Shown here: one piece after another, positions 1,491 to 20,887 of the stretch
How positions within the stretch are numbered: the first letter of the stretch is position 1
How the letters are laid out: each line of letters starts with the position of its first letter
DNA from: a virus
Length of the DNA stretch: 25,683 bases
Strand: one strand, 5' to 3'
IMG/VR virus record: IMGVR_UViG_3300007519_000071
Coordinates: 1-25,683 of that record
Program-made: the position numbers and the translations under genes
The notes under the pieces: generated by a model
Databases searched by the model: none
What the model saw: the letters and a program-made list of their open reading frames with translations, nothing else
Told to the model about the DNA's origin: nothing

Positions 1491-2065
1491 ACTTTAAATC
1501 CTTGAAATGATTTACCTTCGCTTTTCATACGTGAACCCATTGTTGAACTATCAAATACTGGTATGTCTTTAACTAAAGTCTGAGCCGATTGTTCGACATC
1601 ATATAGTTTCATCTTTGCACGGTCAATACCAACAACAAATCGTTTATGCAGGTTTATATCGTTATAACGATTCTTAAGTTGCTTAATCATAATTTGACCC
1701 ATCTTTTCAAGATCTTCTGTTGATATTAGTGCAATCATCAAATCGGCCGTAGCAGGTACACCAAAGCTATTTTTTGTAAGAATTCCATTACAATAAAATA
1801 AGTTATCACCGCTAACAGATATATCAATTGTATCTAATACGCCAACATCTTCAATAGAAACAATTTTGTCATCATAAGAAATCATTGAATCACTGTTTGC
1901 GTTTTTATATATTTTTTCTTCTTCAAGCTTTATCAATACGTCAGTGAACTGGAATATATCCATTTCGTCAGTTAACTTAACCATGCCAGCTTCAACTAAC
2001 ATGACAGCTTTATTAAAGCAGTTCATTGCTATAGTTTCGTTAGCAACATTATTAAACTCTTCCAT
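1487..2065 (-). CDS. 41: Replicative helicase gp41, C-terminal half with split-intein C
   Basis: The 192-residue product has three parts. Residues 1-60 match nothing I know. Residues about 61-99 are the C-terminal piece of a split intein, with the usual TIDISVSGDNLFY strand pair and the ending GILTKN before S100. Residues 100-192 are the C-terminal part of T4-type gp41 helicase, from SFGVPATADLM through QLKNRYND and KRFVVGIDRAKMKLYDVE. Joining S100 to NNTSD of the upstream gene restores the normal helicase sequence. The penultimate intein residue is Lys where His is usual. The start at 2065 has an AAGGA site eight bases away and overlaps the endonuclease stop by 14 bases; the internal Met at 1885 has no such site. 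Confidence 0.9.
   Translation of the reverse strand: MEEFNNVANETIAMNCFNKAVMLVEAGMVKLTDEMDIFQFTDVLIKLEEEKIYKNANSDSMISYDDKIVSIEDVGVLDTIDISVSGDNLFYCNGILTKNSFGVPATADLMIALISTEDLEKMGQIMIKQLKNRYNDINLHKRFVVGIDRAKMKLYDVEQSAQTLVKDIPVFDSSTMGSRMKSEGKSFQGFKV
1769..1885 (-). other. Split-intein C-terminal fragment (IntC)
   Basis: About 39 residues ending in Asn, directly before Ser+1 of the helicase. They carry intein blocks F and G: V-L-D-T-I-D-I-S-V-S-G-D-N-L-F-Y, then N-G-I-L-T-K-N|S. The overall form matches the C fragments of the gp41-8-type split inteins known from marine metagenomes. Asn cyclisation is preserved, but the penultimate His is Lys. The left boundary is approximate, because the translated protein continues 60 residues upstream. 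Confidence 0.85.
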
Positions 2066-3131
2066 TCCATTTTTCCTTAATTAATATTTTAAGTTCTTCT
2101 AACCTATTAGATAAGTTATCATCAGACCATACAATATTATAATCCATTCCAGCATTTTTTGCAAGGACTTCTCTATGTATATCTGATTTAGTAGCTTCAG
2201 CTAACGACATCCAAGGGTTTTTCCATTCTATATCATTACGAGGGTGCCAAAAACAACCATGATATTCAATTACAGTTTTTATAGAACTAATTGTAAAGTC
2301 ATAAAATTTTCCACCGTTATGACTAATATTCATATCTTTTATAAAAAATTCTCTAGAGCCTTTGATGCCAAAATATATCTTTTCTTTAGGTATTCCAAGT
2401 CTTCTGCAAAATTTATATAACGGTATAAAAAATCGTATAGATTCTTTTGAAACGCTACCACCAGAAAATTGAGTAGCAATTGACTTTAACTTACTCGCTT
2501 TCCATTTATCACATCTTACTTTCCATTTATTGTAACCATCAGTCTCGCCATATTTTAATTGTAATGAGTTTAAATCATTTTTCATATCACGTAAAAATGG
2601 TTCTCTAAGTATTTCAGATTCTTCTTTGTTATACCCTTTATGCTCCCAATACTTAAGAGAATGTTTACAAGTATCTCTTCCATAATTTTTGTTTTTAACT
2701 CTTTTAGCTTTACATTTTAAAGAGTTACCCTTTTGTATTTCTGATATTTTTAATTTAGCTTCTTGTTCAGTATAGCCGCGTCGTAACACCCAAAAATCTA
2801 CAGTTAAGATAGAAAAGTTTTTTGGCGTAGGTCTACGTTTTAACTTATCTGTGTATGCATTAGTAACATCGCTACCATATTTTATAGAAAGTCGTTCAAT
2901 TACAGACTTAGCTGATTGATACTTAAGATACTTATTTTCATAAAAATCTTCATTATTAATCAGTATATCAAATAGTGCATTAGCCTTTCTTTTCTTTGAA
3001 GATAGAGTATGTATATCTAAATCAATATGAGCTTGCATGATAGATATATAAGCATTTGATTTATCTTTACATAATTGTGTAAGATGATCTTTTACAAATT
3101 TATGTTCTAGTAATGTGTTAAGTTTTTTCAT
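2052..3131 (-). CDS. Free-standing Vsr-like homing endonuclease within the split gp41 gene
   Basis: The 359-residue protein ends in a Vsr/EDxHD-type nuclease domain: E261 in SREFF, D278 in FYDF, E289 and H291 in IEYHG, then FWHPRND, with a final Asp-rich helix. Before it are duplicated DNA-binding-looking units: FWVLRRGYTEQEA (about 113-125) and YWEHKGYNKEES (about 161-172), and KYG-containing stretches near 84 and 193. Endonucleases of this family are known to sit between the halves of genes broken by split inteins, where they spread the arrangement by cutting intein-less alleles. It lies exactly between IntN (stop 3200) and IntC (start 2065). A T4 late-type box lies 29 bases upstream of its start. 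The Shine-Dalgarno site is weak, which fits low or delayed expression. Confidence 0.88.
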   Translation of the reverse strand: MKKLNTLLEHKFVKDHLTQLCKDKSNAYISIMQAHIDLDIHTLSSKKRKANALFDILINNEDFYENKYLKYQSAKSVIERLSIKYGSDVTNAYTDKLKRRPTPKNFSILTVDFWVLRRGYTEQEAKLKISEIQKGNSLKCKAKRVKNKNYGRDTCKHSLKYWEHKGYNKEESEILREPFLRDMKNDLNSLQLKYGETDGYNKWKVRCDKWKASKLKSIATQFSGGSVSKESIRFFIPLYKFCRRLGIPKEKIYFGIKGSREFFIKDMNISHNGGKFYDFTISSIKTVIEYHGCFWHPRNDIEWKNPWMSLAEATKSDIHREVLAKNAGMDYNIVWSDDNLSNRLEELKILIKEKWNGRV

Positions 3132-3159
3132 TAAGTCTGCCGTTGTTGGTTATATAGAT

Positions 3160-3167
3160 TATTTATA
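3160..3167 (-). promoter_or_regulatory. T4-type late promoter box before the homing endonuclease
   Basis: The minus strand reads TATAAATA, the exact T4 late promoter core, in the 68-base gap between the IntN stop and the endonuclease start. Transcription would begin about six bases on, leaving a leader of about 23 bases before the ATG at 3131. The 8-mer is expected several times by chance in so AT-rich a window, so the intergenic position is what supports it. Confidence 0.55.
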
Positions 3168-3199
3168 CAAACTTAAATTTCCAGCAACAGCAGATTTAA

Positions 3200-4591
3200 T
3201 CATTTGCTATGTAACCTATCACCTATGCTAAGACCAGAATTAATACAACGTCTGCCATTATTAGAAGGAAATACATGATCACGAGAAACGATGATTGTCT
3301 TTCCAGATTTTAGTGTAATCTTTACGCATTCTTTAGGCTTTTTATGATGAACAAACATTGTTGTTTTAAATTCATCTTGAGAAGTAATTTGATCACCTGG
3401 GACAACATCTCCAATTTGTTTAACAGTATTATCCTTAAGACACACTGACTCACCAACATAAATGCAATCACTTGTATTGTTTAGGTCAACATCAGAATTA
3501 CCAAAGCCATCACGGTTTGATTGTGTAGCAGTTACGATTGGTAAATCAAACTCTACTGCCAGACCGCGTACTTCTTCTGCAATAGACTTAATATACGAAT
3601 ATGAATTGATTGCCCCGCCCATACCTTTCATACGTGATGATGCACAAATATTCAAATAGTCAATCATAATTATTTGTGGCACAAAGTTTTTCTTTAGCTT
3701 TAGTTCGTTCAATAGAGCTCGGAAGTGGCCTACATGAGCAGAACCAGTAGGATATTCTTTAATGATAAGCTTACCTACATTCTTTTTGACAATCTTATCA
3801 ATCTTCGATTCAAACATATCACGCGACATTTTGTCTAATTGGTCAATAGGTACATTCATTAAGTTTGCATCAATACGTTCTGCAATACGTTCCTCTGACA
3901 TTTCCAATGTAATATAAAGTACATTCTTACATTGTGACAGCGCAGATGCTGCTAGGTGACACATAAACAGAGACTTACCTACACCAGTAGACGCCATAGC
4001 AATATTCAATGTCTTATTTGGCAGACCGCCTTTGGTAATCTGATTCATATAGTCAAGATCAAATGGAATACGTGACTCAGTCTTATGATAAAACTCGTAA
4101 CGAGAATCTGCATCATTTATATAGTCATGGCCAACATTGGCATCAAAAGTAACTGCTAGAGCAGATGTCAAGAGTTCAGGCAATGCATTCTTAGTAAGAG
4201 TCTCATGTTTACCATCAATGATGTTAATAGATTCCATGATTGCAAGATATATTGCTCGGTCTTGACACCATTGCTCTGTTCGATCATATAACCATATTAA
4301 ATCAGACTCAGGAGTTATTTTAGAAATAGCATTAATGACTTCGGCCGCCTCGGTAAGTTGTTGGTCACTAGACTTATCATTTGAAGATAGTTCAATACCC
4401 AGAGCCTCAAATGTTGGCAAGTTATTATACTTATTGACAAATGAAATAATCTCATTAAAGAGAATAGCATGAGCACCTTCAAAATATTCTCGTTTTAAAA
4501 ACGGTATAACCTTACGAGTGTATTCTTCATTGCTTATCAAGTTCCTCAGTACCGTTGTCTGTATTTTCTGGTCCAATTCGATATTCTCCAC
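3200..4591 (-). CDS. 41: Replicative helicase gp41, N-terminal half with split-intein N
   Basis: This encodes the 5'-3' hexameric replicative helicase, N-terminal half. Residues 1 to about 160 are the gp41 N domain. The RecA-like domain follows, with Walker A STGVGKS (about 201-207), the TLEMSEE segment, LLNELKLKKNFVP and Walker B IIMIDYLNI. The helicase stops at NNTSD (residue 375). An 88-residue intein N fragment beginning at Cys376 is then fused in frame and ends the protein. Splicing with the fragment from 1487-2065 would give about 468 residues, close to T4 gp41 at 475. No ATG is available: the first start is GTG at 4591, and a TTG at 4576 has a well-placed GGAG nine bases upstream and may be the true start. 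It overlaps the preceding gene by about 50-65 bases. Confidence 0.92.
   Translation of the reverse strand: MENIELDQKIQTTVLRNLISNEEYTRKVIPFLKREYFEGAHAILFNEIISFVNKYNNLPTFEALGIELSSNDKSSDQQLTEAAEVINAISKITPESDLIWLYDRTEQWCQDRAIYLAIMESINIIDGKHETLTKNALPELLTSALAVTFDANVGHDYINDADSRYEFYHKTESRIPFDLDYMNQITKGGLPNKTLNIAMASTGVGKSLFMCHLAASALSQCKNVLYITLEMSEERIAERIDANLMNVPIDQLDKMSRDMFESKIDKIVKKNVGKLIIKEYPTGSAHVGHFRALLNELKLKKNFVPQIIMIDYLNICASSRMKGMGGAINSYSYIKSIAEEVRGLAVEFDLPIVTATQSNRDGFGNSDVDLNNTSDCIYVGESVCLKDNTVKQIGDVVPGDQITSQDEFKTTMFVHHKKPKECVKITLKSGKTIIVSRDHVFPSNNGRRCINSGLSIGDRLHSK
3203..3466 (-). other. Split-intein N-terminal fragment (IntN)
   Basis: 88 residues starting with the nucleophile Cys in CIYVGESVCLKDNTVKQIGD (block A) and continuing through VPGDQI to block B at TIIVSRDHVFPS, with the SxxH that replaces the common TxxH. 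The length and the ending GLSIGDRL match the N fragments of gp41-1 and gp41-8 type split inteins. A second Cys eight residues on was considered as the first residue, but only the first Cys gives a correct helicase junction (NNTSD|SFGVPATAD). Confidence 0.9.
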
Positions 4592-6011: not shown

Positions 6012-7270
6012 CTAAAAAATTCATCTAGTGCCATTGTATTACTAACTTTATCATCATCAGCAGCCGTAGTATATGTCATTGATGCATTAGATTGTTTTAG
6101 CAAGTCCGTTTTAATCGTATCAGTATTACCAGTAAGATATTCGATTACGTTTTCCATCATGTCGGCCGCTGTCGTGACTGGTACATTTTGACAAATTACA
6201 TTAGATGAAGTAACTGGTCGTTCGCCAATCAAGTTGAAGTCTTCTGGCATTTTCATAATGCGCAAACAATCGCGCAGTGTTAAATATTGGTCTTTAAATG
6301 GATTGACTAATGAATATGGAAGAGCACCAACTAATGATGGGATAATACCTTTAGGTACCGTTACACCATGTGCCCAGTAGCCTTTACCTGAATCAACTTT
6401 ACCTTGCATAGCACGAGCGCGTTCACCAAACTTTGTCTTAAAGTTATTCTCGTCCATCCAGTCTGCTACTTCATGAAGGCTACCAGAAATACGATCTGAC
6501 TGAACAATACAGTTAGTAGACTTTTCTAGTGTGTTATAATACTCTAAAATATTAGATGCGCCTGACTTATGAACACAATAAGCAATCCATGGATTAAGCA
6601 TTGGTTTCTCTTCATTAATCAGTACATTCATTGGATCATCTGCACGCATCTCCATCTTTAAGATATCTTCTACTGGTTCTGTATCGCGGCGGTAATATTT
6701 AAAGACTGGATTTTCTTCACCTTTAGTAAAGAAGTAAAAGGTACGAGGACGTTTCTGTGCCAGACCATGTAGACGTGATTCAGTATAATATAGATTAAGT
6801 ACATAACCGTATTTCTTACCAATCTCTTGAAGTTTATCTGCAACTTTCTTACCAGCAGTAGTAAATAGACGAGGAGCATTCTCTCCCCAAAAGACTTTAG
6901 GTTTAATTGACCCTAGCACATATTCTGTAGTAGTATACATCCATTCATTAACATTAGAGTCTGCATTAGATGTCGTTGATAAACTAGAGAGACCAGCACA
7001 AGGGCAAGTGGTCATAACAACATCGACTTGTTTAGTTGGAACATAATTTTCGTTACCAGGCGCATCTAGTAATACATATTCCTTATCCCATTTTTTAACA
7101 TCACGAAGATAATTAACAAAGTGAGAATCATTTCCAGCAAATGGCGTATATGATAGTACCCATTCTGGTAGACGATCATTCATAGCCTTCATTGTTCCAA
7201 TTACTTCTCCGCCTACTAATGGTACGATTGTTCCATATGTAATTGTCTCTCTTGTTAGTGATTGCGTCAT
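5984..7270 (-). CDS. C5-cytosine DNA methyltransferase homologue
   Basis: The 428-residue protein shows the ordered motifs of C5-cytosine methyltransferases: a divergent motif I (LVGGEVIG, about 18-25), motif IV with the catalytic Cys (TTCPCAGLSS, PC at 90-91), motif VI as GENAPRLF (about 129-135), motif VIII as AQKRPRTFYF (171-180), a target-recognition stretch, a motif IX-like LRDCLRIMKMPEDF, and motif X as QNVPVTTAADM near the C terminus. It is therefore expected to act on cytosine C5 in DNA. The oddity is its company: gene 42 in this window makes hydroxymethyl-dCMP, whose C5 is already occupied. It begins with an ATGA overlap after the glycosyltransferase and is coupled to it. Its gene end doubles as the uvsX promoter. 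Family confident; substrate open. Confidence 0.85.
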   Translation of the reverse strand: MTQSLTRETITYGTIVPLVGGEVIGTMKAMNDRLPEWVLSYTPFAGNDSHFVNYLRDVKKWDKEYVLLDAPGNENYVPTKQVDVVMTTCPCAGLSSLSTTSNADSNVNEWMYTTTEYVLGSIKPKVFWGENAPRLFTTAGKKVADKLQEIGKKYGYVLNLYYTESRLHGLAQKRPRTFYFFTKGEENPVFKYYRRDTEPVEDILKMEMRADDPMNVLINEEKPMLNPWIAYCVHKSGASNILEYYNTLEKSTNCIVQSDRISGSLHEVADWMDENNFKTKFGERARAMQGKVDSGKGYWAHGVTVPKGIIPSLVGALPYSLVNPFKDQYLTLRDCLRIMKMPEDFNLIGERPVTSSNVICQNVPVTTAADMMENVIEYLTGNTDTIKTDLLKQSNASMTYTTAADDDKVSNTMALDEFFSLQKLNSVL

Positions 7271-14155: not shown

Positions 14156-17100
14156 TCAAGAGAAAAAGTCTTCAAGAGATACACTATTTTCATGTCGCCA
14201 GCCAACTGCATCAAGGATAGGCAGGATAGGCTTAAGAAATGCTTTTTCGAACTGTGTCTCATAGTCAATATACTTATGAAGTTTTAACTCAGGCGGTAAG
14301 TAACCAATATATGAAATAACATTTTGACGAACGGTATTTGGCATTTTAAGATAACAAAACTTTACTTTGTCCCCGTTACGAATAAGATCATTACGTTTAT
14401 CCAGACCAGCAGATAGCACAGCATTGTTATATGTAATGGCACCACGAACATGAATGGGACAACCACTTTTAAATATTGTATTTTTGTCTGTCCACTTATC
14501 GACATCAGATACACCACGTGGAAACGATACTTGCTCTGGCGGCAGACTACAAAAGTAATCTTTAAATGATGAGATTGCTTTTTGTGTATTTGCCTCTGAG
14601 CCTGATATGATTACTTTGAATAATTGTTTTAGAGCATCACGACAGACAGAAGGAGTCGAAGATTTAATTGCTTCAATACCCATGATCTTTAGTTCAGGAA
14701 CTGCATAACGAACACCTTCATTGTCATGCACGTTCAGAATATATCGCTTCTTAGCTGTCCAGATACCACGGTCTGCAATTGATTCACGTTTCATTTCCAT
14801 ACGTGCTTCATAACAGTTGAACCTATCAAACAGTTCGGCATATGAAACTTCTAATGCCTGACCAAATGTTTCTTCACATACCTTATCAAGAAAGTCAACA
14901 GGACTCTTAGGATTAAACTTATTGACCAGAGGACCAAAGTTAACATACAGAGAATTATGAACGCAAATATTATTACCAAAAAAGTTATGGTTATCTTCTA
15001 CTTCAATATCATATACCCATTCTTCGCATACGCCTAAACACTCTACTACAAAGTTATCACTAAACTCTATTATAGGTTCAATATTAGAGCCAACTAAATT
15101 TATAATATTATGAATTTTAGGATTTAAATTAGTTGGCTTAATATCGCTTATTACTAGACTAGTTTTATCCTGAACTATAATTGAGTGATCTTCAGTGACT
15201 GTTACAGATTCTCCGTTTGAATTAGTAATTTTAAAAAGAGTCTTTTTTACTTTATGAGCCATTACATACTTTACAGGCTTATATTCTAGTACACCACTAG
15301 AACTAATTGAAGGTGTTAAATCTGGCGGCGTAATTTTAACATAGTCTTCATTATAATGATCTTCTTTAATTATATTTCCAGTACAAGAATCAAAGTAATC
15401 AGAAATACTTATTGACTTACCATTAACGTTTATTATGGTTGACCCAACGACAGAATCAGTATCAATGGCGACAGTATAGTCAATTGCTTTAGTTTTAAGC
15501 AATGAATTCATCTTAGCATTGACTGCTCGCTCTGCCCATTGAATAACCATTTGACCAGTCAGTGTAATTGCTTCAGCAATACGCAAGTCAAAGTACCTGA
15601 AGTATGCATTACCCATTGCGCCATAAAGAGAGTTCAGTAATAACTTAACGGACATCTGTTGAGTATCAAGGTTGATAATTTCATGCTCAAGGATTAGCCT
15701 GCGTTGTTTATCAGAACTATCAACGGTCTCAAGTTCTTGCTTAAGCTTAATCATTCGCTTTTTGATAGCCTTACGCTCATTGTAATACTTAACAATGATA
15801 TCTGGAATAAAACCTTGCTTATCTTTTCTGAACTGAACTCCATTTACAGCAGTAGCATATGTAGGATCTTGTTCAGACATTCTGCCATTTAAACAAGTAT
15901 CGACATCAAACTGACCACGACCATAATGATCAGAAATAGTTTCGGGCGACATATTCCACTGAACAATAATGTTAGGATACAAAGAGTTTAAGTCAAACGA
16001 ACAGATCCATTCATGAATACCAACTTGTGGATCTTTGACATAACCGCCTGGGTAAGGTGCCTTAAAGTTATCCTTTGCTGGAGGAATAACAATGTTGCGA
16101 GAAGCTAAGTCTCGATAGATTATGCTTTCCCAGATACCAGTAGTACCAAACACGTCAGTATAGTTGACACCGCCACGATAGGCCATTGTCATTGCTAGAG
16201 TAATACAGCCAAGTTGTTCTTCTAGTCTATCAACAAGTTCAACGTCTTTGATGTTATATGATATGAATTTCTGAAAATTAGTTTCATATAGTTCATGCAG
16301 AGATGATACCTCGTCATATGATAATTTGTTTTCACCTAGCACAACATATGCAATATGGTCTAGTTTGTATGATTCTTGAGGACCATAAGTCAACACACCA
16401 AACTTTTGGAACAAGTCATAATAGTCTAGTTGTTGAATACCATACAGTTCATATGCATCAAGTTTTTTACCTTTGATTGCAATTTGACGATAGTTAACAA
16501 TTTCCCACGGTGAAAGTTTCTTAGACATGTCTTCACCCATCACTCGTGTAATACGATTGACAAGATAAGGTATATCGAATAGACGAGTATTCCAACCAGT
16601 AACAATATCTGGTGTATTGTTAGGGCTATGCCAAAAGTCTAGGAAGTTAAGTAAGAGTTTAATTTCATCATCACACTTAGTATATACGATAGCTGAGTCT
16701 TTAATATCAAACTCAGATGTATCATAGTCTTGAGTACCCCAGACATAGTATGTATTATCTTTGCTTAGCTTTAGAGCAATGGAAATGACAGGATACTTTG
16801 CATCTTCAGGAAATGGAAACCCATCTTTTGAGTAGACCTCAATATCAATTGTACCAATGTTAACTCTTTCGCGGCTGAAGGAATCAATTGTATTTGGAAA
16901 CTTATCATGAATGTATTGAGTGGTATAGTTTGTGTTGCCATAGACTTTGAAATTATCTACATCTTTATACATAGCAATGAAGTCTTTAGCATCACGCATT
17001 GTATCAAACTCACGTGGCTCTACTGGAGTACCATCGACTGAATGATAACCAGTAGGTTTATTTGTTTGAAGGTATAGCGTAGGAGAGAATTTAATCTTAC

Positions 17101-17188
17101 GTGCAACTGATGTACCAGTACCGTCATAACCACGATACAGGATGTTGTTGCCGTACCTATTTACACAAGTATAAAAACCGTCGTTCAT
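14156..17188 (-). CDS. 43: DNA polymerase gp43 with in-frame intein
   Basis: Family B replicative polymerase with proofreading. Exo I is TIDIEVYS (D115, E117), Exo II WNTRLFDIPYL and Exo III YNIKDVELVD. Polymerase motif A is FDLNSLYPNI, motif B KLLLNSLYGAMGN and motif C IDTD|S. A 167-residue intein (579-745) interrupts motif C between Asp578 and the Ser of SLYVNFG. After splicing the enzyme would be about 843 residues, against 898 in T4. The KKRYI motif follows in the C-terminal part. The open frame reaches 17206, but GGGAG lies six bases before the ATG at 17188 and the promoter's start point is near 17206, so 17188 is chosen. It is the first gene of its unit. Confidence 0.96.
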   Translation of the reverse strand: MNDGFYTCVNRYGNNILYRGYDGTGTSVARKIKFSPTLYLQTNKPTGYHSVDGTPVEPREFDTMRDAKDFIAMYKDVDNFKVYGNTNYTTQYIHDKFPNTIDSFSRERVNIGTIDIEVYSKDGFPFPEDAKYPVISIALKLSKDNTYYVWGTQDYDTSEFDIKDSAIVYTKCDDEIKLLLNFLDFWHSPNNTPDIVTGWNTRLFDIPYLVNRITRVMGEDMSKKLSPWEIVNYRQIAIKGKKLDAYELYGIQQLDYYDLFQKFGVLTYGPQESYKLDHIAYVVLGENKLSYDEVSSLHELYETNFQKFISYNIKDVELVDRLEEQLGCITLAMTMAYRGGVNYTDVFGTTGIWESIIYRDLASRNIVIPPAKDNFKAPYPGGYVKDPQVGIHEWICSFDLNSLYPNIIVQWNMSPETISDHYGRGQFDVDTCLNGRMSEQDPTYATAVNGVQFRKDKQGFIPDIIVKYYNERKAIKKRMIKLKQELETVDSSDKQRRLILEHEIINLDTQQMSVKLLLNSLYGAMGNAYFRYFDLRIAEAITLTGQMVIQWAERAVNAKMNSLLKTKAIDYTVAIDTDSVVGSTIINVNGKSISISDYFDSCTGNIIKEDHYNEDYVKITPPDLTPSISSSGVLEYKPVKYVMAHKVKKTLFKITNSNGESVTVTEDHSIIVQDKTSLVISDIKPTNLNPKIHNIINLVGSNIEPIIEFSDNFVVECLGVCEEWVYDIEVEDNHNFFGNNICVHNSLYVNFGPLVNKFNPKSPVDFLDKVCEETFGQALEVSYAELFDRFNCYEARMEMKRESIADRGIWTAKKRYILNVHDNEGVRYAVPELKIMGIEAIKSSTPSVCRDALKQLFKVIISGSEANTQKAISSFKDYFCSLPPEQVSFPRGVSDVDKWTDKNTIFKSGCPIHVRGAITYNNAVLSAGLDKRNDLIRNGDKVKFCYLKMPNTVRQNVISYIGYLPPELKLHKYIDYETQFEKAFLKPILPILDAVGWRHENSVSLEDFFS
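14954..15454 (-). other. DNA polymerase mini-intein (167 aa)
   Basis: The intein starts SVVGSTIINVNG (Ser1 nucleophile), has block B VTVTEDHSIIV with the TxxH pattern, and ends WVYDIEVEDNHNFFGNNICVHN before Ser+1, with a normal penultimate His and terminal Asn. It sits at the DTD|S position used by polymerase inteins of archaea and some viruses. No LAGLIDADG, HNH or other endonuclease domain fits in its 167 residues, so it is a splicing-only mini-intein. Confidence 0.93.
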
Positions 17189-20120: not shown

Positions 20121-20301
20121 CTTTATACATCCTATTTTTCAATTCATCGATTTGATTCTGGTTTAGCAACGATAACACTTGTCGTGCTTTCTCATTACTA
20201 TATCCATAATATGCTTTAACGGTTTCAAACTCATCATTACTTATAAGTTTGTCCCATTTAGAAAACCGTTTACGTTTCCTAATAGTATTTATATATTTCA
20301 T
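20104..20301 (-). pseudogene. 62: Second copy of the gp62 3' end
   Basis: A 65-codon frame whose product, from NTIRKRKRFSKWDKL through YYGYSNEKARQ to KGGQSK, repeats the C-terminal half of the intact gp62 at 20516-20887. Two blocks are nearly identical at the DNA level: 20178-20220 matches 20581-20623 with one difference, and 20245-20286 matches 20648-20689 with one difference. The rest has drifted. There is an ATG at 20301 but no ribosome site, so it is probably a relic, although the frame is intact. Since regA overlaps its end, this copy may be the original gp62 tail, cut off when a homing endonuclease gene entered. Confidence 0.85.
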
Positions 20302-20533: not shown

Positions 20534-20887
20534 TTTTGCCTTTATTACATTAATTTCATTTGTGTTTAATATTGTTAAAGCTTGTCGTGCTTTCTCATTA
20601 CTATATCCATAATATTCTTTAACAGCTTTAAATGAATCTATTATTTCAAGTTTGTCCCATTTAGAAAAACGTTTACGTTTCCTAATAGTGTTAGTTAAAA
20701 AATCAAATTGAAGTTTGTTATCTAGTTGATGATATCTATTCATTTCGTTAGCAAGTAATACGGTATCAGAGAAGTATGACAGTGAACGATTGATGATATA
20801 TGCATTGTATGATTTTTCTGCCAGATCATCAACCATCAAGTCTTTTTTAGTATAGTTTATTGAGTTTAAATAGTCAAATGGGCTCAT
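20516..20887 (-). CDS. 62: Clamp loader small subunit gp62
   Basis: gp62 joins gp44 to load the gp45 clamp. The product of 123 residues has the short marine-phage form of gp62: FDYLNSINYTKKDLMVDD, AYIINRSLSYFSDTVLLANEMNRY, LTNTIRKRKRFSKWDK and the closing YYGYSNEKARQALTIL. T4 gp62 is longer, at 187 residues. It lies directly after the membrane-protein gene and its C-terminal half is repeated downstream at 20104-20301 beyond the homing endonuclease remnant. Its tail therefore seems to be the incoming copy that kept the gene whole. Confidence 0.9.
   Translation of the reverse strand: MSPFDYLNSINYTKKDLMVDDLAEKSYNAYIINRSLSYFSDTVLLANEMNRYHQLDNKLQFDFLTNTIRKRKRFSKWDKLEIIDSFKAVKEYYGYSNEKARQALTILNTNEINVIKAKLFRGG

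What the first reader, a model, noticed from the sequence alone, without database searches (positions are those of the whole stretch)
14954..15454. Second intein: a splicing-only mini-intein inside the polymerase active site
gp43 carries a 167-residue intein exactly between DTD and S of catalytic motif C, so no active polymerase exists until it splices. It has all splicing motifs (Ser1, TxxH, HN|S) and no endonuclease. Thus the phage depends on two different inteins for its two core replication enzymes, which may act as a delay or a sensor (for example redox or temperature) on DNA replication.
Basis: partly seen in the sequence, partly recalled or inferred. Interest (0 to 1): 0.65.

Follow-up and report, generated by a model that had tools for sequence, protein, structure and literature searches.

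The report
Endonuclease-free intein in phage DNA polymerase
A phage's DNA polymerase gene carries a small self-removing protein insert at its active site; the insert is real and very probably works, but it belongs to an intein family already known from T4-like phages, and nothing found here suggests that it acts as a timer or sensor.

Summary
Window 14954-15454 (minus strand) encodes a 167-residue intein between IDTD and S of motif C of a T4-like gp43 (1010 aa; 843 aa after splicing). Intein profiles match it, and the AlphaFold2 model (pLDDT 97) is a HINT fold nearest to 9HTH, the Aes123 PolB1 intein.

It is ordinary in kind. Aeromonas, Campylobacter, Vibrio, Tenacibaculum and Pseudomonas phages and many viral contigs carry inteins at this very site. 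In 57 distinct copies the catalytic residues never vary. Most copies are split, with a Vsr-like endonuclease gene between the halves; the window's is one of nine contiguous ones, scattered among split ones. It looks horizontally acquired: the gp43s closest to it lack the intein, while its nearest intein relatives sit in gp43s about 40% identical.

The delay/sensor reading is unsupported: no catalytic cysteine, no conserved cysteine pattern, and the best-studied relative splices with a 5 s half-life. The phage's other intein, in gp41, is a fractured-gene split intein; a related contig has both. New member of a known kind; the loose end worth following is whether contiguous copies are re-joined split inteins.

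The parts
14156..17188 (-). gene 43: family B DNA polymerase precursor, 1010 aa, intein included
   Evidence: Pfam DNA_pol_B 2.5e-29 and DNA_pol_B_exo1 3.9e-22; translation
15455..17188 (-). N-extein, 578 aa, ends ...AIDTD
   Evidence: 72% identical to intein-less L007
14954..15454 (-). contiguous class 1 mini-intein, 167 aa: Ser1, T87-E-D-H90 (block B), VYDIEV..NHNFF (block F), H166-N167 (block G)
14156..14953 (-). C-extein, 265 aa plus stop, begins with Ser+1 (SLYVNFGPL)
3203..3466 (-). N-half (88 aa, Cys1) of the split intein in gp41 helicase ORF 3200-4591; insertion site NTSD|S of gp41
   Evidence: translation; 57% identical N-half in G006; junction assigned here by comparison with gp41-1 from memory
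2052..3131 (-). free-standing Vsr-like endonuclease ORF, 359 aa, between the two gp41 halves
   Evidence: Pfam Vsr 0.0097, below cut-off; weak but repeated similarity to the gp43-intein endonucleases, E to 1.8e-8
1769..2065 (-). C-half of the gp41 split intein (ends GILTKN|SFGVPATAD) within ORF 1487-2065
   Evidence: translation; 65% identical C-half in G006

Best explanation
The feature is a splicing-competent, endonuclease-free class 1 intein at the DTD|S site of phage gene 43, the same allele as the Aeromonas Aes123 and Campylobacter CP21 PolB1 inteins. It works by the ordinary class 1 route: Ser1 attack (N-O shift), transesterification to Ser+1, Asn167 cyclisation, ligation of the exteins to an 843-aa polymerase with motif C IDTDS restored (steps inferred from conserved residues and fold; not shown by experiment). 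It is a mobile parasite that entered this phage lineage horizontally. Its family usually travels as a split intein with a Vsr-like homing endonuclease gene between the halves; this copy has none, so it now probably persists because only an exact deletion would leave a working polymerase (inference).
For: Sequence and profile matches; fold and nearest solved relative 9HTH, Aes123 PolB1; catalytic residues invariant in 57 of 57 family members; same site in named phages and many viral contigs; characterised relative splices in seconds. Horizontal entry: exteins 71-72% identical to intein-less L007 but 40-45% to the gp43s of L096/L099, whose inteins are closest (54%; 50% N, 67% C). Endonucleases of the split copies form one family: 38 other loci, some of them duplicates, match that of L099 at E <= 2.4e-24.
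Against: Splicing was not tested. The genome is a metagenome fragment, so a second intein-less gene 43 elsewhere in the phage cannot be excluded. Higher identity of intein than extein could in part mean slower intein evolution rather than transfer.
Confidence: 0.88

Rival explanations
1. On its origin: the contiguous intein is a re-joined split intein. The endonuclease was lost and the two halves were fused back into one frame, turning a trans-splicing gene into a cis-splicing one.
For: The window copy groups, without decisive support, with split copies (84/98 set of 11, ten of them split). The contiguous state needs at least 8 changes on starred branches. Intermediates exist: L096 is split with no endonuclease, its second half having its own GGGAG-ATG start, at nearly the length of the window copy; L098 and L165 keep fragments resembling the endonuclease C-terminus. 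CC_R7 (contiguous) and CP21 (split, with endonuclease) are about 93% identical in DNA on both sides of the difference.
Against: Change counts cannot tell gain from loss; the unclustered labels also fit repeated invasion of contiguous inteins by the endonuclease. No endonuclease relic was seen in the window linker. The smallest set holding the window copy is not starred.
Confidence: 0.45
2. The intein regulates replication: conditional splicing (redox, temperature) or a built-in delay before the polymerase becomes active, coordinated with the gp41 intein.
For: Insertion at catalytic motif C makes activity depend on splicing; conditional splicing is documented for other replication inteins, e.g. 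mycobacterial DnaBi1 (PMC6195587). The copy has four cysteines (24, 139, 143, 164).
Against: No catalytic cysteine; cysteines vary across the family and 8 of 57 members have none; the nearest characterised relative is cysteine-less and ultra-fast; the closest gp43 relatives lack the intein; the sporadic distribution is that of a parasite.
Confidence: 0.05
3. The intein is inactive or decaying and the phage relies on another polymerase or on a host enzyme.
For: Only that splicing was not measured and the genome is partial.
Against: All catalytic residues intact, frame open, high-confidence fold, identical intein protein in a second assembly.
Confidence: 0.04

Closest known systems
Aes123/Aes508 PolB1 intein, Aeromonas T4-like phages (PDB 9HTH; PMC11923092)
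   Same: Host gene 43, same DTD|S site, Ser1 and Ser+1, same fold (Z 27.5, rmsd 1.8, 161 residues, 41% identity)
   Different: Aes is split (120 + 39 aa), with a Vsr-like endonuclease between the halves in Aes508 and none in Aes516, and has no cysteine; the window copy is one 167-aa chain with four cysteines
Campylobacter phage CP21 (split) and CC_R7 (contiguous, 153 aa) gp43 inteins
   Same: Same site and catalytic residues; CC_R7 is also contiguous and endonuclease-free (44% identity over 167)
   Different: Different subtree; CP21 has an endonuclease-like ORF between the halves
Mimivirus PolB / archaeal pol-c inteins (PMC549080)
   Same: Intein in motif C of a family B polymerase
   Different: Sits two residues earlier, YGD|TDS, with Thr+1; in phages that other site is used by Salicola phage SCTP-2 (IIYGD|SVTH...LKN|TDSS)
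gp41-1 and other fractured-gene split inteins with free-standing endonucleases
   Same: Phage replication gene, endonuclease gene between halves in most relatives; the window's own gp41 has this layout
   Different: Different host gene and insertion site; the window gp43 intein is not split

Membership tests
gp43 PolB1 intein allele (Aes123/CP21 type) | Insertion in gene 43 exactly between DTD and S, Ser+1 | tested here: met
gp43 PolB1 intein allele (Aes123/CP21 type) | Sequence and fold relationship to Aes123 PolB1 | tested here: met
   phmmer 1.5e-29; Z 27.5, 41% identity
Class 1 intein | Nucleophile at position 1, block B TxxH, C-terminal HN, Ser/Thr/Cys +1 | tested here: met
   Ser1, T87xxH90, H166 N167, Ser+1; the intein residues are invariant in 57 of 57 copies
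Class 1 intein | Self-splicing activity | not testable with these tools
   needs expression and mass spectrometry
Mini-intein | HINT domain with no endonuclease domain | tested here: met
   167 aa, only intein splicing models matched it as a domain; HINT model over full length
Fractured-gene split intein | N and C halves in separate ORFs, endonuclease gene usually between | tested here: not met
   one open frame of 1010 codons, no ORF inserted; met instead by most relatives and by the window's gp41
pol-c intein allele (archaea, Mimivirus) | Insertion D|TD with Thr+1 | tested here: not met
   site is DTD|S with Ser+1
Redox-sensing intein (DnaBi1 type) | Catalytic cysteine that can form a disulfide | tested here: not met
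   nucleophiles are Ser1 and Ser+1; other cysteines not conserved
Conditionally splicing intein in general | Splicing rate changed by a physiological signal | not testable with these tools
   needs splicing assays

The most novel reading that the evidence does not exclude
Contiguous gp43 inteins, the window's among them, are re-joined split inteins: loss of the Vsr-like endonuclease gene and in-frame fusion of the halves has happened repeatedly, so split and unsplit forms interconvert in phage gene 43.
Probability: 0.45. Interest if true: 0.42.

Novelty: new member of a known kind. Interest (0 to 1): 0.25.

Why it matters
It adds a natural one-chain member to an intein family now being developed as a very fast, thiol-independent protein-ligation tool. 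The wider survey (57 distinct copies: 9 contiguous, 31 split with an endonuclease-type ORF, 17 split without a full one) shows one insertion site at which whole inteins, fractured genes and split inteins that lost their endonuclease can be compared, which makes the origin and possible reversal of split inteins testable. It does not support a regulatory role.

Tried and rejected
Redox sensor: tested by cysteine conservation, no pattern. Chance pattern or misread frame: excluded by profiles, fold and empty-site relatives. Flanking homing endonuclease next to gene 43: no such ORF seen beside the gene, and the gp43-intein endonucleases matched the window essentially only at the gp41 endonuclease (2064-2966; one weak hit at 6737-7030, E 0.002). 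pol-c allele: site differs by two residues. Plasmids as reservoir: one weak match only. Recent selection on the intein (dN/dS) could not be measured because the only near-identical contig has no intein difference. The original fractured-genes paper was not read here; statements on gp41-1 junctions rest on my own knowledge.

Full report
What was checked. The window is a 25.7 kb virus record. Translation of 14156-17188 on the minus strand gives a 1010-residue family B DNA polymerase with the insert described...AIDTD|SVVGSTIINVNGKSIS...EEWVYDIEVEDNHNFFGNNICVHN|SLYVNFGPL.... The insert is 167 residues at exactly 14954-15454 and the exteins sum to 843.

It is a real intein. Pfam Intein_splicing (1.6e-10) and the NCBIfam N- and C-terminal splicing models match the insert. 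Modelled with 22 related rows, AlphaFold2 gives mean pLDDT 97 and pTM 0.90. Against solved structures the best match is 9HTH, Z 27.5, rmsd 1.8 over 161 residues, 41% identity, followed by many other inteins at Z 21 and below; 9HTH is the fused Aes123 PolB1 intein from Aeromonas phages.

The site is empty in close relatives. L007, 72% identical, reads VIAIDTDSLYVNFGPLVNKFNP; phage C48C1 reads VVAIDTDSVYIRMG. In 73 of the other 79 closest loci the motif is intact; six were not scored by the pattern. Insertion inside motif C means the precursor is very probably inactive; this is an inference from the known role of the two aspartates.

It belongs to a known family. A protein search of phage records finds relatives annotated as intein-containing split DNA polymerase in Aeromonas and Tenacibaculum phages and others in Campylobacter, Vibrio and Pseudomonas phages; the junction is at TD|S of the polymerase in each one read (CP21's frame reads YTD just before the intein). 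Salicola phage SCTP-2 instead uses the neighbouring YGD|TD site, the pol-c site of Mimivirus and archaea.

Layouts. Among 57 distinct copies, 9 are contiguous, 31 are split with a long ORF between the halves, 17 are split without a full one. The ORFs are mostly one family: that of L099 finds 38 other loci (some duplicates) at E 2.4e-24 or better. In Aes508 the record itself notes a Vsr-like domain, and PTm1's is annotated VSR endonuclease. Some copies look like stages of endonuclease loss: L096 is split at nearly the length of the window copy, with its own GGGAG...ATG before the second half; L098 and L165 retain stretches resembling the end of the endonuclease. These layouts were assigned by script and pattern; a frameshift error in an assembly could mimic a split, though several layouts recur in independent contigs.

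Tree. On the splicing-domain tree (148 columns) the label 'contiguous' needs at least 8 changes on well-supported branches; its distribution is no more clustered than shuffled labels. The window copy sits among split copies (L096, L099, L098; set of 11 with support 84/98), but no starred set holds it. So contiguous and split states have interconverted often; the tree alone cannot say in which direction. CC_R7 and CP21, about 93% identical in flanking DNA, differ by the presence of the endonuclease-like gene, so the change is recent there.

Horizontal origin. The window's exteins are 71-72% identical to intein-less L007, but only 40-45% identical to the gp43 of L096 and L099, which hold the closest inteins (54%; 50% and 67%). 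Transfer between distant gp43 lineages is the simplest reading; slower intein evolution may explain part of it.

The sensor idea. The nucleophiles are serines. In the 57 copies Ser1, Thr87, His90, His166 and Asn167 are invariant, whereas a cysteine at the window's cysteine positions 24, 139, 143 and 164 occurs in 8, 7, 4 and 15 copies, and 8 copies have no cysteine. The known redox-sensing replication intein, mycobacterial DnaBi1, works through its catalytic cysteine. The Aes intein splices with a half-life of 5.0 s at 37 C. None of this excludes conditional splicing of this particular copy, but there is no positive sign of it.

The other intein. gp41 in this window is a fractured gene: the first half ends in a Cys1 intein N-half (3203-3466), an endonuclease-like ORF follows (2052-3131) and the second half contains the intein C-half (1769-2065). 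G006, the contig of L099, has a split intein at the same gp41 site (57% and 65% identical halves), apparently another in the gp41 P-loop, and a split gp43 intein. So a replisome with two or more inteins recurs, as expected if these genes are preferred targets. Whether the gp41 endonuclease helps spread the gp43 intein (collaborative homing, discussed in PMC2988022) is open; its similarity to gp43-intein endonucleases is weak.

Verdict. Real, accurately described, ordinary in kind: a new contiguous member of the known gp43 PolB1 intein family. The regulatory interpretation is not supported. What deserves a follow-up is the family-wide interconversion of contiguous and split forms.

Noticed in passing
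   Followed up: partly
L175 (G006:C1:2500-7000), 1800-3576: gp41 of a related contig seems to hold two inteins, one at the P-loop (ESHN|TGVGKS) and one split at NTSE|S, beside a split gp43 intein: three inteins in two replication genes.
   Followed up: partly
L096 4001-4507; L098 4001-4579; L165 3770-4345: Split gp43 inteins without an endonuclease gene, two of them (L098, L165) with stretches resembling its C-terminal end: apparent endonuclease-loss stages.
   Followed up: partly
L088 (Salicola phage SCTP-2) 4001-4489; L129 2654-3192: Phage gp43 inteins at the neighbouring YGD|TD (pol-c) site, two residues from the window's site.
   Followed up: no
window 20178-20289 and 20581-20692: Two stretches of about 113 bases that appear to resemble each other (about 88% identity, seen as secondary matches to L002).
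   Followed up: no
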